Both the position numbers and the translations under genes were made by a program. A stretch of DNA of 64,000 nt from Dyella acidisoli (lineage in GTDB: Bacteria; Pseudomonadota; Gammaproteobacteria; Xanthomonadales; Rhodanobacteraceae): NCBI RefSeq assembly GCF_030160295.1, contig NZ_BSOB01000005.1:248001-312000 (forward strand). The letters are read 5' to 3'. The notes beneath the pieces are model-generated. The model was not told the origin of the DNA. It made no database searches and was given only the letters and a program-made list of their open reading frames with translations. Shown here one piece after another: positions 29,448-63,755 of the stretch; within the stretch, counting starts at the first letter, position 1, and the number at the start of each line of letters is the position of its first letter.

Positions 29448-29762
29448 GGTTCCATCTCCATACGAAGCTCTGATTAAATCGTCGGCTCGGCCGTGGTCAT
29501 GTATAGAATCCCAGCAGATCCGTCACAGGGGGCGGACGAGATCTGCTGCCGGTGTCCATTCACCGACGTGCACGCTTCCCTGCGTGCACGGAACAACGGG
29601 TGTGCCGTACTCATCTGTCGTTTCTTCTCCGCTTTCGAGCGATGAGGTACGCCGCCATCGAGAATGCATGATAGAGACGATTTCTTTATAGAGAATCAGA
29701 GAATTCCGAAGGGACATTGCTTCATCGTCCAGCTTGATCAGCGATGCGTGTCAATCATGACG
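29448..29762. other. Regulatory gap between the GlsB-like gene and the RcsB-like regulator
   Basis: Contains two short palindromes (AGCAGATC/GATCTGCT around 29514-29546 and GTGCACGC/GCGTGCAC at 29567-29588) and one RcsB-like box. No gene seen. Confidence 0.6.
29696..29709 (-). promoter_or_regulatory. RcsB-box-like motif (variant) with -10 for the GlsB-like gene
   Basis: TCAGAGAATTCCGA on the plus strand, one mismatch from the other copies at the penultimate position. A -10-like hexamer TATCAT (minus strand, 29668-29673) lies 22 bp downstream, the best -10 of the eight. Confidence 0.6.
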
Positions 29763-30425
29763 TCAGCAGAACCACAGTCCATTCAATCGCATGTATTCGA
29801 ATAGTTGACCTTCACCATCGATGCCCAGTTTTCGCATCGCATCGTGTTTCTGCTGGCTGATGGTTTTGACGCTTCGCCCCACATGATGGGCCACTTCCGA
29901 AACAGTGAGGCCGCAAGCCAGCAAGCGCAGCACTTCTGCTTCGCGCGGCGACAGCGTCGAGCTGCTTCCGTTTTCGTGAGAGTGAGCGCCATCACATCCG
30001 CCGTTTTCCCGCAGCTTTTCGCGCAAGCGCTGACTGACATAGGTGCCACCGGCGCCGACGGATTGAATGGCCGAATGAAGTTCGCTGGTCATCGAACCCT
30101 TTTCCACTACACCCTTCACACCCGCTGCAAGCATGCCTTTTACTAGCGCAACGTTGCTCAACATCGTCAGAACGATAATGGGTAGGCCGGAATAATGCTG
30201 GTGCAGTCCATGCGCAAGCATCAGGCCATCCGTGGCTTCATCGCCCGACGATGGCATGGAAAAATCCGTGATCAGAAGATCGCACGTGTGTCTGGCCAGC
30301 ACGGCCTTCAGTTCGGAACCATTGCATGCTTCGCCGACCACTTCATAGCCAGCGCGCAGTTCCTCCAACAGTGTGCGCAGCCCCATCAGTACAACGGGAT
30401 GATCATCGGCAATGACAATACGCAT
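29763..30425 (-). CDS. RcsB-like response regulator (paralogue 1)
   Basis: 220 residues from ATG 30425; the longer frame is not supported. The receiver (1-120) has IADDHP, phosphoacceptor Asp54 in LITDFSMP, LTMLSN and the switch Lys in GVVEKGSM. The LuxR-type HTH (about 150-210) has LSPREAEVLRLLACGLTVSE and GRSVKTISQQKHDAMRKLGI. The MRIVIADDHP start, ITDFSMP phosphorylation site and KTISQQK recognition helix closely follow enterobacterial RcsB. No cognate RcsC/RcsD kinase is in the window. It lies 81 bases after a small gene and probably shares the promoter at 30818. A paralogue is encoded at 61642-62295, at the other end of the adhesin locus. Confidence 0.93.
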   Translation of the reverse strand: MRIVIADDHPVVLMGLRTLLEELRAGYEVVGEACNGSELKAVLARHTCDLLITDFSMPSSGDEATDGLMLAHGLHQHYSGLPIIVLTMLSNVALVKGMLAAGVKGVVEKGSMTSELHSAIQSVGAGGTYVSQRLREKLRENGGCDGAHSHENGSSSTLSPREAEVLRLLACGLTVSEVAHHVGRSVKTISQQKHDAMRKLGIDGEGQLFEYMRLNGLWFC

Positions 30426-30506
30426 AGTTTGATCCTGAAGCGAAATTTGCAGGACTTTGTCCTTTCGGCCGCATCCCAAATCGCCAGGCAAAACCTCGCG
30501 AAATGC

Positions 30507-30716
30507 TTAAATAGATTTTCTTGCCGCAAGTCGAAGACGGCGCCTGTGTTTCCGTACCCTGCTGTTGGCATGAACAAAAGCCATGATTTCGGCATGCGCC
30601 GAGCGCGCTTCCGCAACGAGGGACTGGATCAATTCCGTGCAACCTAGGGCGCGGGCTACGCGTGCAGCCAGCATGCAGTGTGCGCGTATGTTGTAACTCT
30701 GCTCGTAGATAGGCAT
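30507..30716 (-). CDS. Small basic protein upstream of the RcsB-like regulator
   Basis: 69 residues; ATG 30716 has GGGAGAG upstream. Mostly helical (RAHCMLAARVARALGCTELI, QSLVAEARSAHAEIMAFVHA) with a very basic tail (RVRKHRRRLRLAARK). No family recognised. It lies directly downstream of an RcsB-like box with a TAGCTT -10 hexamer and before the regulator gene, which supports it being real. It might be an auxiliary partner of the regulator, in the positional sense of RcsA, but there is no RcsA similarity. Confidence 0.5.
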   Translation of the reverse strand: MPIYEQSYNIRAHCMLAARVARALGCTELIQSLVAEARSAHAEIMAFVHANSRVRKHRRRLRLAARKSI

Positions 30717-30788
30717 GAAAGCTCTCCCTCACCGTTGAGCGACTGGACGGATTGGATTCCGACCGACGTCACCGTCGACGATGTTGAA

Positions 30789-30831
30789 AAGCTACTTGCC
30801 GCGTATCAGCTTTTGAATCAGAGAACTCCTA
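30789..30831 (-). promoter_or_regulatory. RcsB-box-like promoter of the small gene and regulator 1
   Basis: The box TCAGAGAACTCCTA is at 30818-30831 (plus-strand reading). On the minus strand it is followed without gap by a -35-like TTCAAA and, 23 bp after the box, by a -10-like TAGCTT at 30789-30794. It predicts autoregulation of RcsB-like regulator 1. Confidence 0.65.
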
Positions 30832-30882
30832 CCGTCTTCATTTGGTCATCACGCCTCACGACGTGGGATCGGCGCTCATGTT

Positions 30883-32727
30883 TTACTGCTCGAACAAGGC
30901 TTCCAGCGCTTGCGCGAACAACTCCGGCTTCCCCCGATAGAACGCTTGCCCTGCATCGCTCTCCAGCAACTTCCGTCGCAGGGAAAGCCGCAATTCATCA
31001 TCCTTGATCAGCTGTGCGGCGGCTTGCACGTATTCGTCCGCCGATTTGGCAACAAGCCAGCTCGGCAAACCCATGCGGGTGAACAGCGCTTCGTCGATAT
31101 GTTCCAATACTTCGGGCCCGGTCTTGCACACACCGACCAGACCCAATGCTGTGACGTCCACAATGCCGTTGGTGTTGCCGAATGGAAACGGATTCAGATA
31201 CAGGTCGCACTCGTTGACCCGTGCCATGTATTCGGCATACGGCATGATGGGGTGAATAGCGGTTTCTGGCAGGTAACGTTGAATCAGGTCGCGCGCTTCC
31301 AGGTAAACCAGGCCGCGCGCCACGCCGGTGAAAAAATGGAATTCAACCGGCCTCCCCGCTTCGCGTCGGATACGTGCGAGCGTATGGATGAAACCAGGAT
31401 TCAATTTCATCGTGGTCGCAGCAACCGCCACGCGCACCTTATCGGGATGCTCGCGAAGGTTTTGCTTATAGCTTCCACTTTGTGCCGATGGCACGAACGG
31501 CATGGCGGACTTCGGCAGTGGCAGCAGCTTTTCGCTGAAACAGCCAGGATCGCCCACCCAGTCTTCCGGCAGCACGAAGTAATCGATGAAGGGCGACATC
31601 GACGTGGCCGGATGTCCGTAGGAAACGATCTGCACCGGTGCCAGCCGCAAATTGGTCAGATAGATGCTGTGCGGAAACATGCCGAACGCCGGGTAATAGA
31701 CAATATCGGGCCGCAATTCCTGCGCCTTGGCGCGCACGAAGGTCACCGTATCGCCCACCACTTCGATGTATTCCTCGAACACGGCTTTGCCAAGCTCATC
31801 CACCTGGCCCGCGTGACCGATGCCTACCACGCGGAAACGTTCACGCGCCGCCTTGATCGATGCCGAATGGGTGCGATAGATGGAGTGCGCACCGGAGAAC
31901 CATTCCAGGATCACCACCATCAGCGGCTTCTCACCGGGAGCGTGCACGCGCGGCGGACCTTCCACGTCCCGGATGCCCTGCTCCACCAGCTTCTTGCGTA
32001 CCAGCCGATTGATCGGTGCCTTGATCGCATGCCGCTTCGGTGTGTCGGCGTAACTGCAATGCATGTAGACGTCGTGGAGTACGCCGATGGGCAGCACGTT
32101 GAGGTCTTCGATCTCGTCAAGCTTGGAAGGCAGCCACTGCAGAAGCACTTCACGCTTGTCGTGTGCGGCAGCCGTTCCAAGGAAACGTGGTGAGAGCAAC
32201 GCACAGGCCAACGCCGCCGCCAGATGACGATCGTGCTTCCACAGCGATTCCATGTTCATGGGAATTTCGGAATTCGGTGTGTAAAGCAGGCAGAACTTCG
32301 CCAGATCGCGGTTGTTCACCTCCACGGCCCTGGCGTCCGGCCCCTTGATATTGAGCGCGCGCAGGATGTGATCGGCATTGCGGAAGGAACTGGCGGCAAA
32401 CAACGTGGCAATCCAGCGATGGAAATACAGCAGCTGCCGATAGCCGTCGAAAGACAGATTGAACGCCGGATCGCTGAACAGCGCCGAGAGCGCCGAGCAG
32501 ATGCGATTGATGATATGCGGATCCTGATCCATGCCAGCCATGCTGGCGGTCGGCTGGGCGAAGAAACTGCGATCGAGCCCACCGTAGTTGCGATCGAGCA
32601 TGCCAAGCAAGGCAACGAACTCGCGCGCGGCGGCTTCATGCTGCCGCGCGTAGCACACGGATTCGAAACGCCCGAGCGAGAAGATCGGCTCCGTTGCGGA
32701 CGGCGCAGGTTTTGCTCCGGCATTCAT
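30883..32727 (-). CDS. hmw1C: HMW1C-type cytoplasmic N-glycosyltransferase (GT41)
   Basis: 614 residues from ATG 32727 (AGGAG about 9 bases upstream), close to the ~620 of the family. HMW1C/NGT enzymes transfer glucose or galactose from the UDP-sugar to Asn in N-X-S/T of adhesins in the cytoplasm before export. An N-terminal all-alpha domain (1-260) precedes the GT-B part: EWFSGAHSIYRTHS (275-288), GHPATSMSPFIDY (371-383), TTMKLNPGFI with Lys441, HFF-x-G-V near 465, NPFPFGNTNGIVD (512-524), VGVCKTGPEVLEHIDEALF (531-549). These are the signatures of Haemophilus HMW1C and Actinobacillus NGT, with the nucleotide-sugar-binding Lys and Asn-rich loop intact. It begins 22 bases after the smaller TpsA stop and should act on that adhesin and possibly on the 5381-residue one. 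Confidence 0.95.
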   Translation of the reverse strand: MNAGAKPAPSATEPIFSLGRFESVCYARQHEAAAREFVALLGMLDRNYGGLDRSFFAQPTASMAGMDQDPHIINRICSALSALFSDPAFNLSFDGYRQLLYFHRWIATLFAASSFRNADHILRALNIKGPDARAVEVNNRDLAKFCLLYTPNSEIPMNMESLWKHDRHLAAALACALLSPRFLGTAAAHDKREVLLQWLPSKLDEIEDLNVLPIGVLHDVYMHCSYADTPKRHAIKAPINRLVRKKLVEQGIRDVEGPPRVHAPGEKPLMVVILEWFSGAHSIYRTHSASIKAARERFRVVGIGHAGQVDELGKAVFEEYIEVVGDTVTFVRAKAQELRPDIVYYPAFGMFPHSIYLTNLRLAPVQIVSYGHPATSMSPFIDYFVLPEDWVGDPGCFSEKLLPLPKSAMPFVPSAQSGSYKQNLREHPDKVRVAVAATTMKLNPGFIHTLARIRREAGRPVEFHFFTGVARGLVYLEARDLIQRYLPETAIHPIMPYAEYMARVNECDLYLNPFPFGNTNGIVDVTALGLVGVCKTGPEVLEHIDEALFTRMGLPSWLVAKSADEYVQAAAQLIKDDELRLSLRRKLLESDAGQAFYRGKPELFAQALEALFEQ

Positions 32728-32749
32728 CGATAGACGCTCCTGGCTCCGC

Positions 32750-35700
32750 TCAAATGCCGCCGCTCCGGCGCGACCTGGCGCAGTTTTCCACTGGCATCGC
32801 ATTCACGCCGTCCGGCACGCGCATCACACCCTGCACGCAATACAAGCCTGACGCAGAACTTCCTGCCGCATCCGAATTGACCGGGCCAGTCGTCGGCGGC
32901 TGCCCGGTGTCTGCCACCTGCAGCATCTGCGGCGATTGCGGGCTCTGCGTCACCGTCAACCACGGTGGCGGAAACGCAGTTGCCATCGATTGCGTCGAGT
33001 GCAATGCACCTTGCCATTTGGCTACGTCGATACTGGGGCTCGGCGGAATGCTCACCGGCCGCGCGGGAGGCACTTCCGTTGGCACTGCATGTGAAACGCC
33101 AGGTGCACTGTTGCCGGTCGACGCCACGTTCGACACTGCTGCGGGAGGCGGCGTGATCGTTCCCACACTGGCGACATAGCTGATGGCGTAATCGCTCAAC
33201 GAGCTGCCACGATTGCTGCTCATACCGACATCGCTGCTGTTGACGACCAGGGTCGAGCCATTCGTGCCCTGCGCATTCGGATCGGTATACGCCTGAGTCA
33301 ATCCGGTCAAGCTGTCGCCCGGCAGCAAGCCAGAAATGTTGGTGACGGCGTCAGCGCTTGCGGTGGTGCTGTCGTACGCCTTCGTTTGCGGCGTTGCCGT
33401 GACGGATACCGGCACCGGCGTGATGGTCGCGCTGGTCGGCTGGATCAGCGTTATGTGGTAATTCGCCAAATCGTTGCCACTCAGATCAATGGTGAGATTG
33501 GCGAGACTGAAGTTGGCTGACTGGGCACCTAGCACATGCGGGCTATTATAGGCACCCGCGCCGGCGATGCTGACGATCTTATCGCCTGCGATCAAACCTG
33601 AGCTGGCTGTTGCGGGCAACGCAACGCCGCCTTTGGCGTAGGCAACGGTGGTGCCATCGTAGACCTTGGTGACGTTGTTCAATTCGATGGTCAGATTGCG
33701 CTGGGCAACGGTGCCGCTAGCGTTTACATAATCGATGGCGTAATCGGTGAGTGCGCTCGCGTGATTGCCCGTCACACCCACGTCACTGCTGTTGACGATC
33801 AAGGTGGAACCATTGGCACCTAGCACCTGCGAGCTGTTGTAGTACTGGCTGAGACCGGTAAGCGTGTCGCCTGGTAGCAACCCGGTAACGTTGGTGACCG
33901 TCGCATTGCTGGCCGTAGTGCTGTCGTAGACCTTGGTATCGGCGGACGCTGCAACAATGACCGACGCCGGCGTGATCGTGCCTGGCGTGTTGACGTAGCT
34001 GATGGCGTAGTCGCTCAAGGTGTCGCCATTGCCACTATTTACGCCCACGTCGCTGTTGTTCACCACCAGCGATGAGTCGCCAACTCCCAGGGCGTGCGAA
34101 CTGTTATACGCCTGGAACAAACCCGTCAGGGCGTCACCACCCACCAATCCCGTAATGTTGGTTACGCCCTGATTGCTGACAGTCGTGCCGTCGTACACCT
34201 TGGTGTCGGAGGTGGCCGTCACCACCACAGATGCCGGCGTGATCGTTCCTGGCGTGTTGACATAGCTGATGGCGTAGTCGTTCAGCACGCTCGAATTATT
34301 GCCAACGATACTGACGCCACTGCTGTTGACTACCAGCAACGAGTCATTGGGTCCCAGTACCTGCGAATTGTTGTACGCCTGGAACAAACCCGTCAGGCTG
34401 TCTCCCGGAACAAGCCCGGTGATGTTGGTGACGTTCTGCGTGCTAATCGTAGTCGCGTCGAATACTTTCGTATCCGCCGCCGCTGTCACGGTGACCGGCG
34501 CAGGCGTGATCGTTCCCGTATTGTCCGCATAAGCGATGGCGTAATCGCTCAGCAAGCTGGAGTGATTACCGATGATCCCCACGCCGCTACTGTTGACGAT
34601 CAAGGTGGAACCGTTGGTGCCCAGTACCTGCGAACTGTTGTAGTACTGGTTGAGCCCCGTGAGGCTATCCCCCGCTACCAGGCCGGTGATGTTGGTGACG
34701 GGCGCAGCGCTGGCCGTGGTGCCATCGTAAACCTTGGTATCGGTGGAGGCCGTTACGGTAACCGCTGCGGGTGTGATGGTACCCGGCGTGCTCACGTAAC
34801 TGACGGCATAGTCGCTCAAGCTGCTCGAGTGATTGCCGGTTACGCCCACATTACTGTTGTCGACGATCAGCAAGGAGCCGTTCGTGCCGAGCGCGTGCGA
34901 GCTGTTATAAGCCTGGAGCAAGCCCGTAAGATTGTCGCCAGCCAGCAGGCCGGTGATGTTGGTGACCGACAGGTTGCTTGCAGTGGTGCCGTCATACACC
35001 TTGGTTTGTGTCGACGCTGTCACCGTTACAGGCGCTGGCGTGATCGTTCCGGTGTTGTTGACGTAGGTGATGGCGTAATCGCTCAACAGGCTCGAATGAT
35101 TGCCAGCCACACCCACGCCACCGCTGTTGACGATCAGCGAGGAACCATTGACGCCGAGCACTTGCGAGCTGTTGTAGAACTGATTGAGTCCGGTGAGGCT
35201 ATCGCCCGCCACCAAGCCAGTGATGTTAGTGACGGGCGTCGTGCTGGTCGTGGTGCCGTCGTAGGTTTTGGTTTGTGTGGATGCTGTCACCGTGACGGGT
35301 GCCGGCGTAATCACATTGGCAGCCGCGGTATTGGAGTAAGCGTTCACGCCGTAACCGGACACCACCCACGTCGTGCCACCGCTGTTGTAAGTCGCGGTGT
35401 TCGCCGTGTAGCCAGCATTGAGGGTGAGGCCCGCTCCGGCATGACTGGTGTTGAACGTTGCGCTGGTCAGGCTGAGGTTGGCGAGGCCGAGTTGGTCGCC
35501 TTCGATCTGTCCACTGACCGTCGCATTGCTTCCATTCACATGCCCTAGCGCGGAGTTGGTGCCGTCGTACACCTTGGCGGCGGTGAGATTGGCCACGGTG
35601 AGCAAAGGCTGCGCGCGATAGTAGAAGTTGCGCGTGCCGGCCACCGCACCGGACACCATGCCCGTCGACGCATCGTATGTCTTGTATTCCGTGGTACCGG

Positions 35701-38626: not shown

Positions 38627-38667
38627 ATCATTTCTCCGGTACGCCGTCGCACCGAAAACGTTGGAGC

Positions 38668-40473: not shown

Positions 40474-40501
40474 ACCCAACCCCTGCAAGTAGATGTGGGT
40501 A

Positions 40502-40544
40502 AAGCTACAGACGATTCCGAACCAAGAGCATCAGAATAGTCCTA
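40502..40544 (-). promoter_or_regulatory. RcsB-box-like promoter of the tpsB1-tpsA1-NGT operon
   Basis: The box TCAGAATAGTCCTA is at 40531-40544, the copy closest to the enterobacterial consensus. The -10-like TAGCTT (minus strand) is at 40502-40507, 23 bp after the box, with the -35 position abutting the box. The predicted transcript start is about 20-25 bases before the tpsB1 ATG. Confidence 0.7.
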
Positions 40545-40595
40545 GTGGGACAGAAATTGTCACCATGGGACCACAGTATTGTTTGAGACCGCGAC

Positions 40596-44556: not shown

Positions 44557-44675
44557 GTCACGTTTCCTGGCTTTCGGCTGCGCCATGTGCGCATCCCCCG
44601 CTTTGCCTGACCATGGGTGTCTCTGCGTCTATGGCGTAAGCGGTAGATCGCCGTCGCCATTCCGTTTCAGGCTGT

Positions 44676-44718
44676 ATTTGAGCCTTCTCGGAAGCGGTTA
44701 CCCATCAGAGGAGTCCTA
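44676..44718 (-). promoter_or_regulatory. RcsB-box-like promoter of the tpsB2-sapC-ppiC operon
   Basis: Box TCAGAGGAGTCCTA at 44705-44718; a -10-like TCAAAT (minus strand, 44676-44681) 23 bp after the box. It lies between the end of tpsA2 and tpsB2, giving tpsB2 its own promoter. Confidence 0.65.
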
Positions 44719-56800: not shown

Positions 56801-59800
56801 GTCAAGCGAATTGCCACCGCCGCCGCCGATGACGATCGGTAGGTTGTTCGCTGTCTTCACGGTGACATTGCGGAATGCGAAGAGCTGCAAATACGAGTTC
56901 ATCGGCACGTAATTGATCCCGCCGGTGGTCCAGTCCCATTGCAGATTGGTCAGATCATTGGCGCTGCTTGGATCGTTGCCCTGGTTGTTGACCAGGAGGT
57001 AGGAATCGCTGCCACCGGGCTGGAAGGACGCCAGGTTGGTGCGCGCCGCCAGCGTGGCAGGGTCCATGAAGGTCAATTTGCCGTGCTTGACAGCGGTGTC
57101 GTAGTTCCAGCCGTTATAGCCCGCGCGCCAATCGACCCCCACGCTGCCGCCAATATTTCCCATCTGAAAATACTGGTTGAACAGGTTGAGGTTGTTGCTG
57201 GCGTAAAGGACGGTACTGCCGGTCGTTCCGAAGGGGAATGTTTGGGTAAAGCCGTTCAACACGTTGCCCGACCAGCTCAGCGAAGCAGGCGTCGTCGAGG
57301 CGCTTACTGCGTACAGGTTGATGTTGCCGAAGCCCTGGAGATTGATGTTGTTGAATTTGCCTGATGCAGGCGCCTGCATGATGATCGGCTGCCCGCTAAC
57401 GGGGAAATCATCACTGCTATCGGTAGCACTGGGCGTGGCACCGCCGGTCGCGCCACCGGCGAAATCGATGCGCCCCACTGTGCCCGCGGTGGTGTTATAG
57501 CCAAGGCCGGACCAAATTTGCGCATTGTTGATTTGCCATAGCGGTTGCGGGGCCAGCACCTTCAATAGGCCGAAGAGGTCGCTTTGGTTTGTTGCAAAGT
57601 CATAACCTGCCGCGATATTTACCGTGTTGGCCACCGCCAGCGTCTGCGTAACAGCATTGATGCCGTAACCCTGCGCCAGAATGATGTTGCCAGTGTCATT
57701 CAGAGTCAGATTGCCGGTGCTGTTGACCGCCAGCGTATTCAATACAGCCGTATTACTGCCGTTCTGCAGCAAATCGATGCGCGTATCGTCGAAACCGCGG
57801 ATGTCCATGTTGCTGAACGTGTTGTCGGTACGCGCCGGGCGTAACTGCACGTTGTTCGCGGGCGTGTCGAACGCCGCGCGTCCCTGGCTCGGCAACTGCG
57901 CTTCGGTGGCGGCGACCGATCCCTGCCAGGTCGCCTGCGAGTTGGTCGGAATGGTACCCGCCGTGCTTACGCCCAGGCCGGAGTACATGTAGACGTAATC
58001 GCCCTGCAGAATCGTGTCAGGTTGCGTAAACGTGATCAGACCCTGCTGGTTGGTAAAGCCGCCGTTATAAACACCGTTGACGGCCGCCGCACCCAGCACC
58101 AGGCTACCGCCGCTCCCCAAGATCAGATTCTGGGACACGGTAATGTTGTTGGCGGAAACCTCGCTAATGTAAGTCGAGGCCAGGATTGGCGTCGTGGGTC
58201 CGGCACTGTCCTGCACGACCATGTTCTGGAAGCCTTCCACCTCCAGATAGCCAAACTGTCCATTGGGCGCATCCGGATGGATCAGCACAATCGACGGGTT
58301 CCAGGTCGTGCGATCGGATGCTGTGCAGTTGGCCGCCGTGTTGCACCCGCTGGACGCCCAGATGTTCCCGCCCTCCAGCAAGGTGGGGGCGGTTCCTGCG
58401 AACTGGACGGCACCTTGGTTGGCAATGGCGTTGTTAAGGACTACCGATGCGGGACCACCACGGCCTGCATCTAGCACGAGCTCGCCGCTCGGTCCGCCGA
58501 TATACGAATTACCTTGCAGAACGATATTGCCCTGAGAGGTTTCGAACACCAGCGACGCACCGTTCGGTGCGCTTTCATTGACAGGCACCGTCAGCGCGGT
58601 GCCACTGGTCACCCCTACACCTGCGTAATAGACGATGCCACCACCCGTGGTGGCCGCGGGATTGAGGGTGATGTCTGGTTTAATGGTGCTGGTGGGGGCA
58701 TCCCAGCGCTCCACTTCCATCTGCCCGAAGCCGAGTATCCATAGGGCGCTGTTGAACGAATTGTTACCCGCACCATACTCAACGACGACGTTGCTCGGCA
58801 GGAAATTCGACACACCGCCAACGCTGCCCGACATCGCCACCACATTGCCGCCCTGCAAGATCACCGGATTGGCGGTACCACTTGCAAAGGTGACCAGGTT
58901 AGGACCAAACCCCTGGTTCGTACTTGCATTGCTCAGCAGGCTTGACGCCTGGCCCGTCGAATTCCCCAACCAGCTATAGGGGGCAAACGTATAGGGGCTG
59001 ACGTTACCCACCACGTACAACGTGCCGTTCGGGCCTGCCGTTAACTGTGGTGTGTTTACAGCGACGCCTTCCCCCGCTTGCAGCCACAAGCTGCCGCCCG
59101 TCAGGGTGATGTTGGAGTTGAGTGTCATCACCTTCTGGGACGCCAACGTGAGCGAACCATTGCCGGTGTTGGTAATCGCCGCACCGGAGTTCAACGTCAG
59201 GTTGTTGATCGCCTGCAGGGTCAGGGTGTTGTTGCTGGCGTAGGTATACCCCTGCGTGATGGTGATGTTGCCGGTACCACCACCGCCTGTATTGGTGTTG
59301 ATCGTTACAGCACCGCTACCCAGCGCTGTGACGATGTCCTGCCAGCTGATCTGCGAGGTGTTGGCCGTAAAGGTCGGCCCCGCACCGCCTGGCACCGTCG
59401 GTGCGCCGGTAAAGCCGGTGCTGGTACCTGCGCCTGCTGCGTTAATGGTGAGGTCGGAAGGGTCCAGCAATAGCGTGCCGTTCGCGCCGCCAAGGTCGCC
59501 GCCGAGCAGGTCGTCCTTGCCACGGTAATTGAGGATGGCATGGCCCGACACTTCGGCATTGCCACCATTGCCGCCACCGCTGCCAGTGGCGGTGATACTG
59601 CCGTAGTAGTTGGTCGTGTCGTTCGCCCACACCACCACTTTGCCGCCCGATGCATTGCCCTGCGTGCCGCTGGCATTCAAGGTGACGCCGCTGTCCACAA
59701 AGGTGTCGGTGGCATTGGCGATGTCCGTGCCCTGCCCGTGCATGTCGCCACCCACGCGGATCACACCGCCGCTGGCGGTGCCGCTCGCGCTCAATGCGCT

Positions 59801-60949
59801 GTTGCCCATTAACGCAGTGTGGTGGCCGGTGACGTCGATGTGGCCACCGCTGCCGGACGTACCGGCTGCATTGATCGAGCTATCGCCCGCAGCATACGAA
59901 CCATTCGCCGTATAGCTGCCGCCCACCATCGCAGTGCCCGCATTCGGATCGGCCGTAAAGACGGCTGTACCACCTTGCGTGCCAGAGACATTGATCTGCG
60001 CGTTGCTGGCGTAAACGTTCTGACCGCTCACCTGCACCGTGCCGCCGCTGCCGTCCGCGTTCTGTGCCTGCACCGTGCCGCCGACCTGCACATCGCCGCC
60101 ACCGCTGGCCACAATCTGCACGCTGCCGTCCGGATTCGCGGCCGTGCCGGTGGCCTGGATCATGCCGCTGGTGTTGATCGCCAGCGCGCCCAGGTTGTCG
60201 TTCACCGCTGCCAGCATCACCTTCGCCGCCTGCAGTGTGCCGGCGACGTTGATCGTGCCGTGCTCGCCCGCTTGCGGCTGCACGGTGATGGTGCCGTTGG
60301 AGAGCGTGACCTGATCGGCCGCCAACAGGTTGACCTTCGCACCTGCGGTCAACTTCGCTCCGGCATCCACCGCCACCGCCGGCGCCACCAGTGTGATGTC
60401 GCCACCGGGCGTGCTGATCGTGCCCAGCACTTCGATCTTGCCGTTGCTGCCGGACAACACCATCGTGCCGCCCTGCATGAAAGCACTGTCGGAGATGTTG
60501 CCCGTTGCGGCGACAAAACCACCCTGCACGTTGATCGCGCCGCTCTGCCCGACCAGGATGCCGTTCGGGTTGATCAGGAACACGCGGCCGTTACCTTGCA
60601 CCAAGCCGTTAATGGTGCTGGGCAATGATCCAACCACGCGATTGAGCGTGGCCGACGTTGCATTCGGTGCCTGGAACGTAACGGACTGGCCGCTGCCGAC
60701 GCTGAAGTTGTTCCAGTTGATGACGGCGTTGTTGCTGGTCTGGTGGATCAGCGTGTTGCTGCCGTTCGCGCTGATGGTGGCATTGCCTGCCATCACCTGC
60801 CCGCCGGTCGGGCCGCCGGCCAGCGCAACGCTGCTATACGCGGCGCCCTGAAGCACGCCCAAGACTGTTGCAATCTGCAAGACCAGCGATTTGACGCGTG
60901 GCGTTGCGGAGATCGATCTGCGCGAGTTCGAGCGATGATGTGTCTTCAT
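44804..60949 (-). CDS. TpsA2: giant two-partner secreted adhesin, 5381 residues
   Basis: An uninterrupted 16.1-kb frame starting at ATG 60949 (AGGA about 7 bases upstream). Signal peptide about 1-44 (VKSLVLQIATVLGVLQGAAY, ending SSVALA). TPS domain about 45-300: TLIHQTSNNAVINWNNFSVG, VGSLPSTINGLVQGNGRVFL, INPNGILVGQSGAINV. A very long beta-helical Gly/Asn/Thr-rich rod follows, with at least three ~600-residue repeats in its C-terminal half. Near the end is a Pro/Thr/Ser spacer (PTPVPTPTPVPTPSPSSG), then an end domain with a C-X15-C pair (SAENCVDI, KHVCMEHS). The end cysteines resemble the HMW1 anchor that holds the adhesin in its TpsB. N-X-S/T sequons are abundant. Codon use appears uniform; no frameshift seen. 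Own promoter region with two RcsB-like boxes. Confidence 0.95.
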   Translation of the reverse strand: MKTHHRSNSRRSISATPRVKSLVLQIATVLGVLQGAAYSSVALAGGPTGGQVMAGNATISANGSNTLIHQTSNNAVINWNNFSVGSGQSVTFQAPNATSATLNRVVGSLPSTINGLVQGNGRVFLINPNGILVGQSGAINVQGGFVAATGNISDSAFMQGGTMVLSGSNGKIEVLGTISTPGGDITLVAPAVAVDAGAKLTAGAKVNLLAADQVTLSNGTITVQPQAGEHGTINVAGTLQAAKVMLAAVNDNLGALAINTSGMIQATGTAANPDGSVQIVASGGGDVQVGGTVQAQNADGSGGTVQVSGQNVYASNAQINVSGTQGGTAVFTADPNAGTAMVGGSYTANGSYAAGDSSINAAGTSGSGGHIDVTGHHTALMGNSALSASGTASGGVIRVGGDMHGQGTDIANATDTFVDSGVTLNASGTQGNASGGKVVVWANDTTNYYGSITATGSGGGNGGNAEVSGHAILNYRGKDDLLGGDLGGANGTLLLDPSDLTINAAGAGTSTGFTGAPTVPGGAGPTFTANTSQISWQDIVTALGSGAVTINTNTGGGGTGNITITQGYTYASNNTLTLQAINNLTLNSGAAITNTGNGSLTLASQKVMTLNSNITLTGGSLWLQAGEGVAVNTPQLTAGPNGTLYVVGNVSPYTFAPYSWLGNSTGQASSLLSNASTNQGFGPNLVTFASGTANPVILQGGNVVAMSGSVGGVSNFLPSNVVVEYGAGNNSFNSALWILGFGQMEVERWDAPTSTIKPDITLNPAATTGGGIVYYAGVGVTSGTALTVPVNESAPNGASLVFETSQGNIVLQGNSYIGGPSGELVLDAGRGGPASVVLNNAIANQGAVQFAGTAPTLLEGGNIWASSGCNTAANCTASDRTTWNPSIVLIHPDAPNGQFGYLEVEGFQNMVVQDSAGPTTPILASTYISEVSANNITVSQNLILGSGGSLVLGAAAVNGVYNGGFTNQQGLITFTQPDTILQGDYVYMYSGLGVSTAGTIPTNSQATWQGSVAATEAQLPSQGRAAFDTPANNVQLRPARTDNTFSNMDIRGFDDTRIDLLQNGSNTAVLNTLAVNSTGNLTLNDTGNIILAQGYGINAVTQTLAVANTVNIAAGYDFATNQSDLFGLLKVLAPQPLWQINNAQIWSGLGYNTTAGTVGRIDFAGGATGGATPSATDSSDDFPVSGQPIIMQAPASGKFNNINLQGFGNINLYAVSASTTPASLSWSGNVLNGFTQTFPFGTTGSTVLYASNNLNLFNQYFQMGNIGGSVGVDWRAGYNGWNYDTAVKHGKLTFMDPATLAARTNLASFQPGGSDSYLLVNNQGNDPSSANDLTNLQWDWTTGGINYVPMNSYLQLFAFRNVTVKTANNLPIVIGGGGGNSLDIAPVGNTSVPAIEGDVVIDPNLYLNQSDGYWATAIYANSLNTLGILGFNSGTTATVSGNDWSRSFGFYLNLLHRSVLADGVTAGNTNSVVNLSADTSGTANDTLQEEYVNLSLLQVLAGNLTVNSRGLIQITNWGNTTDTSNITIRSQGDIGVAANFTRTGAGNLSLQADANLNSIYAGYAAINPVYTGSNTDPRGYDTAGADGKGAVFAWVGGTNALTPQFGTVITANSNTTVPAGYTFYSLTGTPLPAGTALTAGEAVIQPGAVPGGFTVLTNGGNTVYAIYNYAVVAAGGYYGEYNMPYVSLGTSTSVGGIAPQALTVDGGLVTNVGGQANPIGTIVTGNTGSKGLGLSGQFYTQVTQPSGVLGTYSSMGTPEAWMTQQGGPISLTSGTGNIDIRSGYEYQSTEWAHITGDIADLRLGSSAVANTGLNNPTSTATWFKLGTTSGSIAVAGYRDILVTDASGINPSAGTAPVSLVANRDLDVLGPLTRASSGSDLTLGAGNMIVTAPGVTINADQLQLIVGNGANISTSVNGLSGEMIAPANNPTGVLGVSSTATYNGMTIGGDTPTGVLSVTNGKTITINNGFVNGMLAAFTFGPKGLVWPAPAPYGSTTTSPLDPIGLTVQSAGATLAGSINIGTVGGSIIVNAPILVNNSPGITTGEINLDADGTTGAGDIQINSNITTQIPGPNGNIFMEADKGSITHGGGAQGADTISGNDLTMIASGAIGATGTGNAIDTNVNAALFQSGAGAYVYQSGPLALTAAGSANGTVNITDSQNTLTVGNFPAGTTPQTTLTPTITNNVYVQGLTSEVGIVDTGSNSITLNAIGANSDVMAAAHTYTPNGTITVNAGRNIVDTQEDTNYGDIGIGTGTPTSNSLAFSAGGLLTLNAGNTIGGDGSTTPNPLDVYFGNLSATSIGTGAQSGVYLTALDTNASGGVVIGGGVSSQKNIDITARASTVAGSGSLDVTSAMTTANGGYIRLAADDNVNVNAAVSANTTGNVVLAAGLSGSGSINQGAAGTLSSGSGEINAYAATNINWDANATTTGNILAQSGQAMTYGGAGVLNAASVVLTSGTTIGTATNAVQTNAANLAIANGGNAFVNNAGAVTLAARSSNNANINVSTTNGTITVGNVNVATSILPGTGQDVGWDNNPNNTPLAAGASLVGVSANGSGNVNLLANGTGSNVLIDQSVTSGSGSITATANTNVVFNNGVAQTGTGATGIVSLNATNGQVIDNELASTPVVIGNTLNATAASGIGTAASAGGPGSTGDLATQVSNLNAVITGTGNAVVQNSGALNVQGSVGSNTLNVGSTAGITVSGPVSASGGTVDLTSGMGAMGSTGLVNNAGGVTLSANVTTGALSISSSGLVQQTGGSIKDGSLKVDTTRYTTGNSATLTNDTSTLTENGSSVTGNYTISTGGTLNQTGSTTVGGNLTETGFTGGTVNGTVKVGGNYSGVNTYGPGGSITAAGANSWTNANAATTGVVVATGAGPDFDLASANLGTGNNITVDLRSKTSTVTGAQDAILLNGSGANELGTVTLTTGGKVTVNTATNDYNLVQTAPVNVASLTVNSVAGSSAATGLENNGLGVINGINYGTHDNALNGGNGSRIALTSSGNTIGAITINNGDTAGVSSDGNITVNNVTVNNGLSVASQGGAISNGTGTAIQARTLNLSALNGIGTAANPINYDTATVVSATGAPGILATAVTGPTGSTFVSTTGAVQLGGMVNTISFTCDNTHSNLCNTATTTTGTSVSTASLGNSSLLGNITLTAAGPVTTGNTVTTNGGNITIANTSGNVTLSNAVTANGKGTVQLTSAADLLVNAAVSSSAGEINALATNNVALGANVSTGGNVFIQAQNKAITQSAGTVSGKGVVLTAGTTIGTAANRINLNSSQLALQSAGSAYATEQGPTTVAGVTTSNGALDVQTTAGDLTVGAVTLTPTIANNAVGAALAGLNANGTGTIRTQANGGDLNVNDAMVSGSGEINAKSTTGNVNLGANITTTGNAFVEGNQAITYTAGTITAKGAVLTSDNGPIGATGAGTVQTAVSTLGVNSAGDAFVNNAGAMTLAAESANGGNLNLSTTNGTITVNSVALTPTIAANAAGLTLSGVSANGTGNANITANGAGSNVLIDQNVTSGSGAINVTANNNVTFNNGVAQTGTGATGIVSLTATNGQVIDNEAAATAVVIGNSLNATAANGIGTAASAGGPGSAGDLATQVSNLDAVITGTGNAVVQNSGALNVQGSVGSNTLNVGSTVGITVSGPISATGGTVDLTSGMTSLGSTALSNNAGGVTLADDVTASTLSINAAGLVQQTNGDITDTTTRVNTTRYTTGNSATLSNNATTMTEAGSTVAGNYSITTQGTLNQTGATKVGGNLTESGETGGTVNGTVTVGGNYSGVNNTAGGGSITAAGSNSAVNNNSAVTGVVTANGAGPDFDLSSVNLAGTTLSNITVNLRSISATVTGATDAVLLNTGNNALGTVTITTANAPVTVTTGLHDYNLVQTAAIALPTTTALTVNAVAGANTPTQMQNNTLGTINGINYNTHDNTLNGGQGSRIVLNNPANTFAGITINNADSANVATSGSLQLGAITAANSVVANSQNGAITQKSGAPAILASALALNAATGIGATNAPIRYDTATAIAAGDTPVLATSESGNGSTAVSTTGAVQLGGAINEVGFDLTSSNLSGTTTTGTLLTPTLVYNTATTGEINLLSSGTATLAANVTTTGNAFVQSISGNIVQTGGLLSANDAVLTANAGSIGATNSPINTNVSTLGLSAQGDVNAMNSGALTLGAVTSSNGAVNVATTDGTLTVGAINVNPTIAGNAMGLTQSGVSANGTGAVNLVAGGSGSNLLIDQNVTSGSGAITGTADNNITFNNGVAQTTTGATGTVALTATNGQIIDNEAASTPVVIGNTLNAAAANGIGTVASGPGVTGDLATEVSTLSANITGTGNVVIQNLGALNVSGSVNANTLDVGSTAGITVSGPINATGGTVDLISGMTGLGSTGLSTNKGGVTLASNVTANDLSINAAGLVQQTSGLINDTTLAVDTTRFTTGNSAALTNGTAGMTENGSSVAGNYTISTQGSLDQTGTTTVGGNLTETGETGGTVNGTVNVGGNYNGVNTYGPNGSVTAGGSNSATNANAATTGVVVASGSGPDFDLSSVNLNAGQNVTVDLRSTTVSNVGGATNAILLNGGANTLGTVTLNTAKAPVTLTKTTADYNLVQTSALNLGNVTVNAVAGANTPSVMQNNTLGTIAGSNYDVHNNALNGGQGSRIVLNNTGNTFGTVTLNNGDAANIATSGNLQLGAVTVANSMVATSQNGSITQSKGAPGIKAAALALNAATGIGASNAPVVYDTATAIAAGDTPVLATSESGNGSTAVSTTGAVQLGGTINEVGFDLTNSNLSGTTATGTMFTSTAVDNSADTGEINLLSNGAATLAADVTTNGNAFVEAKQGNITQTKGKVNAASAVLTADAGSIGGAGSPIATNVQTLGLNAQGNAYAVNDGALTLGAVTHSNGTVNVSTVKGPLTVASISVQPTMAGNAAGLTQSGVSANGSGNVVLQANGGDLAVNANVASGGGEINVKSTSGNVNLGANLSTTGNAFVEAANNITQSAGTLSASGAVLTADTGSIGTSGSAIQTAVNTLGVTASKGSAYVSNAGAMTAAGTTKGDMALSTRSGQLTVGSVSLTPSVANNAQGIAQNGITTGGNLSLLAAPSTNGTLEIDQPVNVGGAMIGVGGVDVNVHSNVTANGPITFVADAASGSKPGPGWFRNTADISSNTGVAIYAVAGGQAPQGYGTTANNQVQLGTISGITTPNAPASRWGQAYPSSSYVPGYNGGGYGMFYKAPLAAVAPTPVPIGSNPTPVPTPTPVPTPSPSSGPSPSPVPTQIAVTPTLMVPPATGTAQMQYGGGFVVDISSLFDTPTTWFVDQTAVPFIRSTFDASLPINGNYAPPRFMFGVFPGSAENCVDIPEDKDNGKVKHVCMEHSPTLSSL
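46530..48340 (-). repeat. TpsA2 long repeat, copy C
   Basis: About 600 residues from LTQSGVSANGTGAVNL through FNNGVAQTTTGATG, SGPINATGGTVDL, TTRFTTGNSA and NGGQGSRIVLNN to GFDLTNSNL. Homologous to copies A and B; landmarks at about 48104-48175, 47625 and 46965. Confidence 0.85.
48680..50510 (-). repeat. TpsA2 long repeat, copy B
   Basis: Same order of motifs as copy C (LTLSGVSANGTGNANI, FNNGVAQTGTGATG, SGPISATGGTVDL, TTRYTTGNSA, NGGQGSRIVLNN, GFDLTSSNL). Landmarks at about 50280-50350, 49794 and 49125, about 2.17 kb from copy C. Confidence 0.85.
51560..53340 (-). repeat. TpsA2 long repeat, copy A
   Basis: Same motif order (ASLVGVSANGSGNVNL, FNNGVAQTGTGATG, SGPVSASGGTVDL, TTRYTTGNSA, NGGNGSRIALTS), more diverged towards its end, where it carries a unique cysteine pair (FTCDN, NLCNT). 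Landmarks at about 53110-53185, 52634 and 51972, about 2.84 kb from copy B because of an inserted shorter repeat. Confidence 0.8.
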
Positions 60950-61222: not shown

Positions 61223-61494
61223 GCGGATGCTTGGATGCATCAGGGAGAGGACGTAACACCAAAAGACGTGCCGATATCGATCATCGAAACCCAGCGAACG
61301 AATGCGCAAAGCACGGACAGTTCGACGCTTCACTCTTTTCTGCGATAAAAAAAATCCCTGACGGCCGGAAGCACTCTGGGGGCGCTTCCGACCGTTGCCG
61401 ACCTGGTCGTCAGCCATCGCGTCCATGCCATGCGGGAACGTGCGATCGACGCGGCGGCGTATACCACCATGCACCGTATCGATCTGTTGGAGGC

Positions 61495-61537
61495 AGTCTG
61501 ACGCGGGGCAGACTGCGTATGAATCAGAGTATTCCTA
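61495..61537 (-). promoter_or_regulatory. RcsB-box-like promoter of tpsA2, distal
   Basis: Box TCAGAGTATTCCTA at 61524-61537, with a -35-like TTCATA abutting and a weak -10-like CAGACT (61495-61500) 23 bp after the box. It lies just downstream of the regulator-2 gene. Confidence 0.5.
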
Positions 61538-61572
61538 GCGCATGGGTCGCAGTGAAAGTCACGTCACCATCG

Positions 61573-61608: not shown

Positions 61609-61641
61609 TGGGGGAGTCATGCGCAATGCCTGCACCGGAAT

Positions 61642-62295
61642 TCATATCCCATGCGTACGCATGTATTCGAACAACTGACTGTCGCTGTCGATACACAGTT
61701 TGCGCATGGCATCGTGCTTCTGCTGACTGATCGTCTTGATGCTGCGGGAAGTCACCCGGGCGATTTCCGTAACCGTCATGCCGCGCGCCAGCATGCGCAT
61801 GATTTCGGCTTCTCGGGCCGATAGCGCCGAACCGGCCTGATCATCGTGGGCGCGCTGCGTGGCGGTTTCCATCGCCCCTTCCGCCAGCCGCTTGCGCAAA
61901 TATTCACTGACATAGCTGCGTCCCGAGCGAACCATTTGCACCGCCAATGTCAGCTCTTTGGTCAAGGCGGTTTTCTCGACCACCGCCTGCGCGCCCGCAG
62001 TCAGCATTCCTTTGATCAGAGCCGGGTTGTGCGACATCGTGAGCACGATGATTCCCAGCCGGGGATAGCGTTCGCGTAACTGGCCAATCATCCCAAGGCC
62101 ATCCACCGTTTCGCCATCGACCGGCATGGAAAAGTCGGTAATGACCAGGTCGCAGGCTTGTTCGGTCAAAAACGTAAGCAGATCCGCGCCACTATGTACC
62201 TCGCCGATGACCTGGCAATCGGCGCAATGGTTTTGAAGCAGCATACGTAATCCCACCAAGATCACGGGATGATCATCAGCTATGACAACACGCAT
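61642..62295 (-). CDS. RcsB-like response regulator (paralogue 2)
   Basis: 217 residues from ATG 62295; the longer frame upstream is unsupported. Same architecture as paralogue 1: receiver with IADDHP, Asp54 in LVITDFSMPVDGE, LTMSHNPALIKGML and the switch Lys in VVEKTAL; then a LuxR-type HTH with LSAREAEIMRMLARGMTVTE and SRSIKTISQQKHDAMRKL. The recognition helix (KTISQQKHDAMRKL) is identical to that of paralogue 1, so both should read the same DNA site. The receivers differ more, so they may answer different inputs. No kinase nearby. It sits between the lipoprotein gene and the giant adhesin. Confidence 0.93.
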   Translation of the reverse strand: MRVVIADDHPVILVGLRMLLQNHCADCQVIGEVHSGADLLTFLTEQACDLVITDFSMPVDGETVDGLGMIGQLRERYPRLGIIVLTMSHNPALIKGMLTAGAQAVVEKTALTKELTLAVQMVRSGRSYVSEYLRKRLAEGAMETATQRAHDDQAGSALSAREAEIMRMLARGMTVTEIARVTSRSIKTISQQKHDAMRKLCIDSDSQLFEYMRTHGI

Positions 62296-62904
62296 ACACC
62301 CCCCAGGCAGGTCTACCAAAAAGCGGCGCCGTCCGGCTGGCAAAACGATGGGAATCCATGCCGCAAACAATGGACCAGCACCTATGCCTCGCTGTGCCGA
62401 ACAAGAGCGCATCCAACGCTCAAATCAGCACGGGCGCTAGTCTATGACCAGACTGCACGGGTTTGTACAGCCCCGGTTTTCCAGGATGTGACCTAGCTTG
62501 CGGGCAGCTATCTGACGCAGATGGCATTTGATCGATCCATATCACTCTAATGGCCGCGAACGACGGCCTAAACGCCTGCTGCTGCGGCAGGGCGTCACAT
62601 GAGGAACAGGCACCGGCGTCAGGTAAAAAACCAGCTCGGTCAACCCGCGACCAAGTACTACATGCGTAACAGGGGGTCTAAATTTTGGGTCGCAGCGCGC
62701 CGGGTCTCACGACCGGGTATCAAGGCGCATCAAGCGGCCGAGCTGGGTTGCTAGAGATTGCTGAAAGCCCGAAACAAATAACATCAGAGCATTCCTACCT
62801 GCTTTGCGTGATGCAAACACGGCTTCATTTCGCAGTGAATCAGCGTCCTTCTCCACTTCGGCGAGGAAGCGTCGCACCGTCAAACTACCTCGAACATGAG
62901 CAGT
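62296..62904. other. Intergenic region upstream of regulator 2
   Basis: No supported gene. Contains one RcsB-like box (62784-62797), about 490 bases before the regulator start, so an untranslated leader or a small RNA may be made from it; no specific RNA structure is claimed. Confidence 0.5.
62755..62797 (-). promoter_or_regulatory. RcsB-box-like promoter upstream of regulator 2
   Basis: Box TCAGAGCATTCCTA at 62784-62797, a -35-like TGTTAT abutting and a weak -10-like CAATCT (62755-62760) 23 bp after the box. Confidence 0.5.
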
Positions 62905-63471
62905 TCACTGCAGCCGAATGTGGCTGCCCGGATCGTGGTCCATTCGCGTGACATGCGTAACACCGTTGTACACATACTTCACGTCGTAGCCGACGATCTC
63001 GCTACTCGTTTCATTGACGGTGTTGCATTGATGCTCGACCGTGGACGTCACTTGCGCTTGCTGGTGCGCTGCTTCGATGCGGTTGCCCGCATAACCGCCG
63101 CCCACCGCGCCCACCACCGTCGCCACCGTCTGGCCTTTGCCGTGACCCACCATATGGCCGAGCAGACCTCCCGCCACCGCACCGATGGCGGTGCCTGCGA
63201 TATCGTGCTGATCTTTCGGCGGCTCGGTGTGGTTGACGACGACATCCTGGCAAACCTGCCTTGGATGCTCGACGGTTTTGTGTACGGGCGTTGTGCTGAG
63301 CACGTCGCCGTATTCAGGACCGCGGATAACCGGCACAGCAGCCGGCGTTGCGGCCGAGGACGCACCGGCGGTTCCGACGTCCGCAGTTGCATCGCGGTTG
63401 CATCCGCCCAGGCCCACCACGAGGACTATCGTCGTGCCCGTAATCAATACATAGCTCAACAGTTTCTTCAT
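62905..63471 (-). CDS. Glycine-zipper outer-membrane lipoprotein
   Basis: 188 residues. A lipoprotein signal peptide (LSYVLITGTTIVLVV, lipobox GLGGC with Cys24) is followed by an Ala/Pro linker and a glycine-zipper 2TM domain (AGTAIGAVAGGLLGHMVGHG, VATVVGAVGGGYAGNRIE), as in the Rickettsia 17-kDa/SlyB/OsmB-like group. The C-terminal beta part (VEHQCNTVNETSSEIVGYDV, KYVYNGVTHVTRMDHDPGS) also follows that group. Relatives are Rcs- or osmotically induced envelope proteins in enterobacteria. The RcsB-like box at 63742 lies about 270 bases upstream on the matching strand. Confidence 0.9.
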   Translation of the reverse strand: MKKLLSYVLITGTTIVLVVGLGGCNRDATADVGTAGASSAATPAAVPVIRGPEYGDVLSTTPVHKTVEHPRQVCQDVVVNHTEPPKDQHDIAGTAIGAVAGGLLGHMVGHGKGQTVATVVGAVGGGYAGNRIEAAHQQAQVTSTVEHQCNTVNETSSEIVGYDVKYVYNGVTHVTRMDHDPGSHIRLQ

Positions 63472-63579
63472 TCGCTACTCCTCAATTGTGGAATGCCGTT
63501 GCAACAACGAGCCATTCCATGTGCTCTCGTTCGGCAGGCAGGCATCGAACGTTGTTCGCACCCTTGAAAGAAAATCCCT

Positions 63580-63613
63580 GGCGATCGGGAAACCCCACAC
63601 CATCCCGATCGCC
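63580..63613. repeat. REP-like palindrome, GGCGAYCGGGA family, copy 2
   Basis: GGCGATCGGGA / TCCCGATCGCC with a 12-base loop, related to 28386-28424. Confidence 0.7.
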
Positions 63614-63712
63614 ATTCAGCAACATGGCTGATCCAAGGCAATCGCCGAGGAGGAAACATACGAAACAGCACACATCACAAGCCATGCGATGCCGAAGCAT
63701 GGTTGCGGGAGG

Positions 63713-63755
63713 AGTGTCGAGAAGGAGAAGGCGAGCTGCAATCAGAACATTCCTA
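63713..63755 (-). promoter_or_regulatory. RcsB-box-like promoter of the lipoprotein gene
   Basis: Box TCAGAACATTCCTA at 63742-63755, a -35-like TTGCAG abutting and a weak -10-like GACACT (63713-63718) 23 bp after the box. Confidence 0.55.

What the first reader, a model, noticed from the sequence alone, without database searches (positions are those of the whole stretch)
29668..63755. Eight RcsB-box-like motifs with fixed promoter geometry define a putative regulon inside the adhesin locus
Seen: TCAGANNANTCCTA (plus strand) at 29696 (one mismatch), 30818, 40531, 44705, 61209, 61524, 62784 and 63742. All are intergenic, all in one orientation, and all upstream of minus-strand genes. On the minus strand every copy continues TCTGAT(G/T), and a -10-like hexamer starts exactly 23 bp after the box in seven copies (TAGCTT twice, TCAAAT, TAACGT and weaker ones) and 22 bp in the eighth, so the box directly abuts the -35 position. 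Known: the enterobacterial RcsAB box is about TAAGAATATTCCTA, and activators touching -35 are class II. Inferred: the two RcsB-like regulators in the locus act here and coordinate both TPS operons, a regulator and envelope proteins. I found no further copy by eye left of 29 kb.
Basis: partly seen in the sequence, partly recalled or inferred. Interest (0 to 1): 0.92.

Follow-up and report, generated by a model that had tools for sequence, protein, structure and literature searches.

The report
RcsB-like boxes drive new leader RNA
The eight repeated DNA boxes look like genuine promoter switches beside adhesin genes in a Dyella-like bacterium, and four boxes of this cluster are followed by a structured RNA, absent from the RNA family library searched, that relatives often carry ahead of giant adhesin genes.

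Summary
The eight boxes are confirmed (8 found, 0.28 expected), with a -10-like hexamer at a fixed distance (22 nt after the 15-mer in 7 of 8). They keep the five conserved letters of the RcsAB box (PMC4325325, passages). The cluster is larger: one more box at 28262 (+) and four just right of the window. Around RcsB-like regulator genes outside the window, 17 of the 24 closest homologues have the box within 450 bp downstream on the same strand, 0 upstream. An RcsB-like operator is well supported; which regulator binds is open.

The surprise lies downstream. A ~95-nt RNA with four helices follows four of the nine window boxes. A covariance model built only from other genomes ranks exactly these four first in the window. 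24 of 27 pairs change on both sides. It occurs in 40 of 197 genomes of the family, matches no Rfam family, and 30 of 41 hits that are neither training nor own-genome carry the box 84-140 nt upstream. It often precedes type V adhesin, GlsB-like or GGDEF genes and has an RsmA-type ANGGAN hexaloop in 46 of 61 copies. RsmA binding is inferred.

The parts
28262..28304 (+). ninth box CCGGAATCCTCTGAT and -10-like TATCTT (not in the finding)
   Evidence: PWM 16.8, -10 at +22
28313..28431 (+). weak copy of the structured RNA behind box 28262
   Evidence: R1 18.8 bits, E 0.0038
29667..29709 (-). box 29695-29709 and -10 region
29505..29600 (-). best window copy of the structured RNA, loop AGGGAA, 57 nt before the GlsB-like start
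   Evidence: R1 72.5 bits, E 3.4e-17; start distance
29202..29447 (-). 81-aa GlsB/YeaQ/YmgE-like membrane protein (name recalled), homologues behind the RNA in 7 other genomes
30789..30831 (-). box 30817-30831 and -10-like TAGCTT ahead of a 69-aa ORF and RR-B
29763..30425 (-). RR-B, RcsB-like response regulator (longest frame starts at 30491)
30883..32802 (-). HMW1C-like glycosyltransferase
   Evidence: Pfam HMW1C_N; NCBIfam NGTferase below cut-off
32750..38701 (-). TPS adhesin with ESPR, TPS and YDG domains
38668..40488 (-). TpsB transporter (ShlB/FhaC type)
40502..40544 (-). box 40530-40544 and -10-like TAGCTT ahead of that TpsB
42322..44586 (-). second TpsB transporter
44676..44718 (-). box 44704-44718 and -10-like TCAAAT ahead of the second TpsB
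44804..60949 (-). 5381-aa filamentous-haemagglutinin-like TPS adhesin
   Evidence: ORF; TPS domain in the N-terminal 650 aa
61180..61222 (-). box 61208-61222 and -10-like TAACGT ahead of the 5381-aa adhesin
61351..61444 (-). structured RNA behind box 61523, loop AUGGAC, followed by T8
   Evidence: R1 28.4 bits, E 1.2e-5; DNA match to G003
61495..61537 (-). box 61523-61537 and weak -10-like CAGACT
61642..62295 (-). RR-A, RcsB-like response regulator (longest frame starts at 62412)
62755..62797 (-). box 62783-62797 and weak -10; a terminator-like hairpin with T6 lies at 62655-62635 before RR-A
62905..63471 (-). glycine-zipper envelope protein
   Evidence: Pfam PF05433
63572..63661 (-). weak copy of the structured RNA behind box 63741, about 100 nt before the glycine-zipper gene
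   Evidence: R1 14.6 bits, E 0.049
63713..63755 (-). box 63741-63755 and weak -10-like GACACT

Best explanation
The boxes are operators for an RcsB-like response regulator of Rhodanobacteraceae. A dimer sits on TAGGANTNNTCTGAT directly upstream of a degenerate -35 and helps polymerase start from a -10 at a fixed distance. One island of about 40 kb carries this promoter ahead of many of its operons: two TpsB genes, TPS adhesins, both RcsB-like regulators, and glycine-zipper, GlsB-like and FecR-LysM envelope genes. At four of the window's nine boxes, and across the family, a conserved RNA with four helices follows the promoter. I think this RNA is most often a 5' leader that puts adhesin, c-di-GMP and envelope genes under a second, post-transcriptional control, most likely RsmA/CsrA binding the ANGGAN hexaloop of helix P1. 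Shown by computation: boxes, spacing, linkage to regulator genes, RNA structure by covariation, box-RNA linkage. Inferred: binding, activation, leader role, RsmA.
For: Box excess and fixed spacing. RcsAB consensus letters T1, A3, G4, T10, C11 kept in all eight (against PMC4325325 passages). RcsB homodimer sites usually lie upstream of -35 (PMC5651002 passage). Regulators most like RcsB. Of 24 regulator homologues with 180 bits or more outside the window, 17 have a box of 11.5 or more within 450 bp downstream on the same strand, 0 upstream, 0 on the opposite strand; shuffles 1.4%. R1, made from 16 other genomes, ranks the four window copies first. 24 of 27 pairs with changes on both sides, 94.8% of cells paired against 79.6% shuffled and 31-42% slid. 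Of 41 hits neither training nor own genome, 30 have a box of 12 or more at 84-140 nt before the RNA; shuffles 0.65%. By fixed rules 14 of 65 hits precede ESPR-type adhesins, 7 GlsB-like, 11 GGDEF proteins. ANGGAN in 46 of 61 copies, GGA in 58 of 61, the loop form of high-affinity RsmE targets (PMC7652899 passage); the genome has one CsrA.
Against: No binding, expression or transcript data. The species are related, so counts are not independent events. 33 of 65 RNA hits have none of the three recurrent genes downstream by the rule. 11 of the 41 independent hits lack a box of 12, among them three leaders of YadA-type adhesins, and the own copy on C53 lacks it too. Two of the four window copies are weak (18.8 and 14.6 bits) and do not keep the ANGGAN loop in the alignment printed. 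-10 elements at 61523, 62783 and 63741 are poor. Five of nine window boxes have no RNA behind them. The weaker regulator homologues have the box in only 3 of 19.
Confidence: 0.6

Rival explanations
1. The structured RNA is a free small RNA (an RsmA sponge or a base-pairing RNA) made on activation, as RprA is by RcsB or RsmY/Z by GacA; genes downstream have promoters of their own.
For: The window copy at 61351 is followed by T8 and by a second box before the adhesin. The RNA lies between the regulator and the next gene in many loci; in 33 of 65 no recurrent gene follows by the rule. RcsB activates the sRNA rprA in E. coli (PMC5651002 and PMC7917084 passages).
Against: My terminator rule finds one in 1 of 65 hits (the rule missed the T8 of 61351, which starts 6 nt after the stem). 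Only one ANGGAN loop per copy, where CsrB has many GGA motifs (PMC7652899 passage). Recurrent genes of three kinds follow in 32 of 65.
Confidence: 0.25
2. The RNA is a riboswitch-like leader that binds a small ligand, perhaps c-di-GMP, rather than RsmA.
For: Four-helix junction with two conserved loops (GGA in 58 of 61, CCCC in 60 of 61); found ahead of GGDEF and adhesin genes; no Rfam match.
Confidence: 0.12
3. The box is recognised by the kinase-linked paralogue (contig C41) or another NarL-type regulator, not by RR-A or RR-B.
For: That paralogue is next to a hybrid kinase; its presumed downstream neighbour at the start of contig C8 has box and RNA; helices of all three are nearly alike.
Against: RR-A and RR-B lie inside the densest box cluster of the genome and have boxes ahead of them.
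Confidence: 0.3
4. The boxes are copies of a mobile or duplicated repeat without regulatory role.
For: The promoters at 30817 and C17:185422 share further sequence downstream, so some copying occurred.
Against: Flanks of most boxes are unrelated apart from box and -10; box and spacing recur beside regulator genes in other genera.
Confidence: 0.03

Closest known systems
RcsB/RcsAB box of Enterobacteriaceae (consensus TaAGaatatTCcta, PMC4325325 passage)
   Same: Five conserved letters kept in all eight; inverted heptads; position just upstream of -35, as for RcsB homodimer sites (PMC5651002 passage).
   Different: C at position 2 in all eight where the consensus has a; no enterobacterial host; regulators below the RcsB model's cut-off; many copies in one adhesin island.
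RcsB-RprA (regulator-activated RNA in E. coli)
   Same: An RcsB-type regulator's box directly ahead of a structured RNA.
   Different: The RNA here has another structure, is repeated beside regulator genes across a family, and is often followed by adhesin, GlsB-like or GGDEF genes.
RsmA/CsrA-regulated leaders (glgC, psl) and RsmA-binding sRNAs (RsmY/Z, RsmU)
   Same: GGA in a hairpin hexaloop, ANGGAN in 46 of 61 (form from PMC7652899 passage).
   Different: One conserved four-helix architecture shared ahead of unrelated genes; one such loop per copy; no Rfam match; RsmU is reported from Xanthomonas only (PMC7694677 passage).
BvgA-fhaB of Bordetella (recalled, no call)
   Same: NarL-type regulator, heptad-type sites and a filamentous-haemagglutinin adhesin.
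   Different: Closest solved relative here is RcsB; no structured leader RNA of this kind is known to me there.

Membership tests
RcsAB/RcsB box | Conserved letters T1, A3, G4, T10, C11 of TaAGaatatTCcta | tested here: met
   All eight sites against PMC4325325 passage
RcsAB/RcsB box | Bound by RcsB homodimer or RcsA-RcsB | not testable with these tools
   No binding data; no search for an RcsA gene was made
RcsB orthologue | NCBIfam RcsB model over its cut-off (235 bits) | tested here: not met
   RR-A 142.5, RR-B 144.1 bits, though the best-scoring model for both
RcsB orthologue | RcsC/RcsD/RcsF phosphorelay | not tested
   Only HATPase_c was searched in this genome: none near RR-A or RR-B; RcsD, RcsF, IgaA not searched
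Class II-type activator promoter | Operator abutting -35 at fixed distance from -10 | tested here: met
   Best -10 at 22 nt in 7 of 8 window sites, 5 of 10 other own sites, 18 of 32 relatives' sites; a sequence feature only
Known RNA families (Rfam 15) | Match over a family's gathering score | tested here: not met
   0 in the window, 0 in seven loci; 0 up to E 10 over the own C8 copy
RsmA/CsrA target RNA | ANGGAN hexaloop on a stem | tested here: met
   46 of 61 copies exact in the six loop columns, GGA in 58 of 61
RsmA/CsrA target RNA | Binds RsmA/CsrA | not testable with these tools
   No experiment; one CsrA gene present
CsrB/RsmZ-type sponge sRNA | Several GGA hairpins and an own terminator | tested here: inconclusive
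   One hexaloop per copy in the model region; terminator by rule in 1 of 65, rule imperfect

The most novel reading that the evidence does not exclude
A previously undescribed class of structured leader RNA, so far seen only in Rhodanobacteraceae, is inherited together with an RcsB-like operator promoter, so that one regulator family switches on giant adhesins, a c-di-GMP enzyme and envelope genes while the leader lets a second signal (RsmA or a ligand) veto or permit their expression.
Probability: 0.6. Interest if true: 0.87.

Novelty: new variant of a known kind. Interest (0 to 1): 0.8.

Why it matters
It offers a testable example of transcriptional (Rcs-like) and post-transcriptional (possibly Rsm-like) control joined in one heritable DNA module, and a structured RNA family with strong covariation that Rfam 15 lacks. 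It predicts targets in 40 of the 197 family genomes searched. No homologues of the classical Rsm RNAs were found in Xanthomonas (PMC7694677 passage); whether Rhodanobacteraceae lack them too was not tested here, but this RNA would be a candidate link between surface adhesion and Rsm.

Tried and rejected
Considered and dropped. (1) That the boxes drive terminated sRNAs: four window boxes seemed to have hairpins at a like distance; three of these hairpins, at 61523, 63741 and 28262, proved to be helix P3 of the conserved RNA, which in relatives has no T-run by my rule in 64 of 65. The one at 62783 is an ordinary terminator-like hairpin. (2) Kissing of the P1 GGA loop with the P3 CCCC loop: judged by eye only, not supported. 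(3) Start-stop codon pairs after GGGA in some copies: not general. (4) Box and RNA beside Stenotrophomonas, Pseudomonas and Burkholderiales homologues of the regulator: no RNA at E up to 0.001 in 61 of 61 loci L245-L305; boxes of 12 or more only in L290, L292 and L304. (5) RNA outside the family: the other-family hits have E 0.015-0.09; with model R2 the 6 of 151 genomes with a hit at E up to 0.001 are all of this family. (6) Close-homologue scan with RR-A in genome contigs: nothing. (7) Weak Rfam hit ar35 at 63265-63391 on the plus strand, 17.3 bits against 45: chance. (8) Pattern SGGGATTTT: no match in the window, badly chosen. (9) DNA search with the 61340-61545 stretch: 8 of 61 genomes at E up to 0.01, but only G003 strong.

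Rows dropped. From 24 box-downstream stretches I left out L106 (no such RNA by eye) and, on purpose, the five of this genome before building R1; L067, L079 and L082:10731 were re-cut by hand and all were trimmed by 15 nt. Training loci were chosen because they had a box, so they do not count for the box-RNA link. Three of the own-genome RNA boxes also helped make the box matrix, so own hits are left out of the 30 of 41. For the regulator test, 43 genes in the 40 loci fetched were used (three loci are of this genome); one listed row with a like E-value (G057:C129) and all lower rows were not fetched.
Full report
What was checked. The eight sites exist as stated and exceed chance greatly. The minus-strand reading is TAGGANTNNTCTGAT (one site TCGGA), then 22 nt, then a -10-like hexamer in 7 of 8; a -35 hexamer with a 17-bp spacer would start at the last T of the 15-mer and is far from consensus. 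All eight keep the five conserved letters of the RcsAB box (PMC4325325, passages and figure legend).

The set is bigger. A matrix from the eight finds a plus-strand box at 28262 and four boxes just outside the window, ahead of a FecR-LysM gene, small membrane-type ORFs and a short ORF. In the whole genome the refined pattern has 15 exact matches, 11 of them in a 38-kb stretch. The four others lie near a GH5/lectin gene (L032), an ORF without Pfam match (L033), PKD and kumamolisin-type genes (L034) and a PAS-GGDEF gene at the start of C8. Dispersed 1-mismatch matches elsewhere are little above the control.

Organism. Three same-genus genomes have contigs equal in length to records of Dyella acidiphila, D. 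choica and D. nitratireducens, so the window is from a Dyella-like species of Rhodanobacteraceae.

Regulators. RR-A and RR-B match RcsB best among solved structures and NCBIfam models, below NCBI's cut-off. Their recognition helices (RSIKTISQQKHDAMRKL, RSVKTISQQKHDAMRKL) resemble RcsB's RSIKTISSQKKSAMMKL (alignments). Of 61 genomes (own included), 30 have homologues at E up to 1e-25. I tested 43 such genes outside the window, in 40 loci. Of 24 with 180 bits or more, 17 have a box of 11.5 or more within 450 bp downstream on the same strand, 0 upstream and 0 on the opposite strand downstream; of 19 weaker ones 3, 2 and 1; shuffles 1.4%. At a stricter 13 bits it is 13 of 24 and 2 of 19, shuffles 0.4%. 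In 25 of the 47 sources clustered, a gene of the hybrid-kinase cluster is present, often divergent from the regulator; FecR-LysM and CHASE2 clusters have 11 and 12 loci. One member of the kinase and CHASE2 clusters and the local FecR-LysM gene were checked by Pfam. The window's two regulators have no kinase near them, so the phosphate source is unknown; the conserved receiver Asp, Thr and Lys are present in the alignment of 11 regulators.

The RNA. A DNA search with the stretch behind box 61523 hit genome G003 at a like distance behind its own box beside its own regulator (E 3e-7). Eighteen such stretches from 16 other genomes gave a consensus of four helices: P0 (UCCC/GGGA) closing P1, P2 and P3. 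Model R1 from these alone gives in the window, filters off, 29505-29600 (72.5 bits), 61351-61444 (28.4), 28313-28431 (18.8) and 63572-63661 (14.6), starting 51-109 nt after a box start; the next hit has 11.7 bits, E 0.28. In the family, 40 of 197 genomes and 13 of 26 genera have it at E up to 0.001; 6 of 151 genomes drawn from the order have it with model R2, all in this family. On 61 aligned copies, 94.8% of cells pair, 24 of 27 pairs have changes on both sides, and slid structures fall to 31-42%. That alignment is fitted to the model, which leans towards the structure.

Box and RNA travel together. 65 hits were examined (63, plus the two weak window ones). 18 were training. Of the other 47, 35 have a box of 12 or more in the 260 nt upstream. 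Leaving out the six own-genome hits, it is 30 of 41, at 84-140 nt, against 0.65% of shuffles. Several species are close kin. In the named collection, 14 of 19 Rhodanobacteraceae-type loci (L226-L244) have the RNA at E up to 1e-9, and 0 of the other 61 at E up to 0.001; several of the 14 are the same genomes as before.

What it precedes. By fixed rules 14 of 65 hits lie 66-243 nt before ESPR-type proteins (MNKIYSKVWN...), 7 lie 149-558 nt before GlsB-like proteins, 11 before GGDEF proteins, and 33 before none of these. The rules missed at least two seen otherwise: the window copy at 29505 (GlsB-like start 57 nt on) and G138. One such adhesin was confirmed by Pfam as YadA-type with ESPR.

How it may work. 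P1's loop is ANGGAN in 46 of 61 copies while its stem varies. That is the loop of high-affinity RsmE targets (PMC7652899, passages). The genome has one CsrA. I favour a leader bound by RsmA; a free sRNA or a ligand-binding leader remain open.

Novelty. No Rfam match (one sub-threshold chance hit). Paper searches on Rhodanobacter and RNA motifs, Dyella and adhesins, RsmA, YadA and leader RNA and Xanthomonas RsmA sRNAs listed no title or abstract start that describes this module. They cover open-licence papers only, listings were capped, and I read passages of PMC5651002, PMC7694677, PMC7652899, PMC4325325, PMC7917084, PMC6298664 and PMC5829831 (of the last also one section), no paper in full.

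Noticed in passing
G000 C1:74422, C6:97489, C23:34761, C50:82978, C53:17024 (TAGGGATGCTCTGAT) and C62:80078 (TAGGGATGATCTGAT): A near-box 15-mer recurs six times on other contigs; contexts seen for two (L010, L019) differ beyond the 15-mer. Perhaps a dispersed repeat.
   Followed up: no
L076 9322, L086 9158; L088 and L090 just after the regulator: Box letters seem to follow the regulator's recognition helix: SLQKHSAMAKLG with TAAGAAxxTTCTTAT, SRQKRSAMEKLG with TGAGATTCCTCTTAT. Two loci each, by eye; L083 and L085 with a like helix showed no such box.
   Followed up: partly
G000 C53:41764-41874 (L085 14265-14375): Another copy of the RNA (47.8 bits) 80 nt before an ESPR-type adhesin in this genome, without the box; the same arrangement in G002, G012 and G014.
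   Followed up: partly
L083, L085, L088, L090 RNA copies: These copies have a long P3 loop that holds a second CAGGAU motif, a possible second RsmA site.
   Followed up: no
G000 contigs C41 (end) and C8 (start): The regulator at the end of C41 and the box-RNA-GGDEF unit at the start of C8 look like neighbours split by the assembly, judging from relatives.
   Followed up: partly
window 30507-30716: A 69-aa ORF with a Shine-Dalgarno-like GAGGGAGAG lies between box 30817 and RR-B; a promoter very like box 30817's is at C17:185422.
   Followed up: no
L230 (CAJCJD010000176.1): Record titled Candidatus Eremiobacteraeota equals in length the contig of G008, placed in the window's own genus; probably a mislabelled record.
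   Followed up: no
G047 and G056 (another family of the order): TCAGAAAATTCCTA occurs three times in G047 and four times in G056 among exact matches, although no homologue of RR-A at E up to 1e-25 was found there. Unexplained.
   Followed up: no
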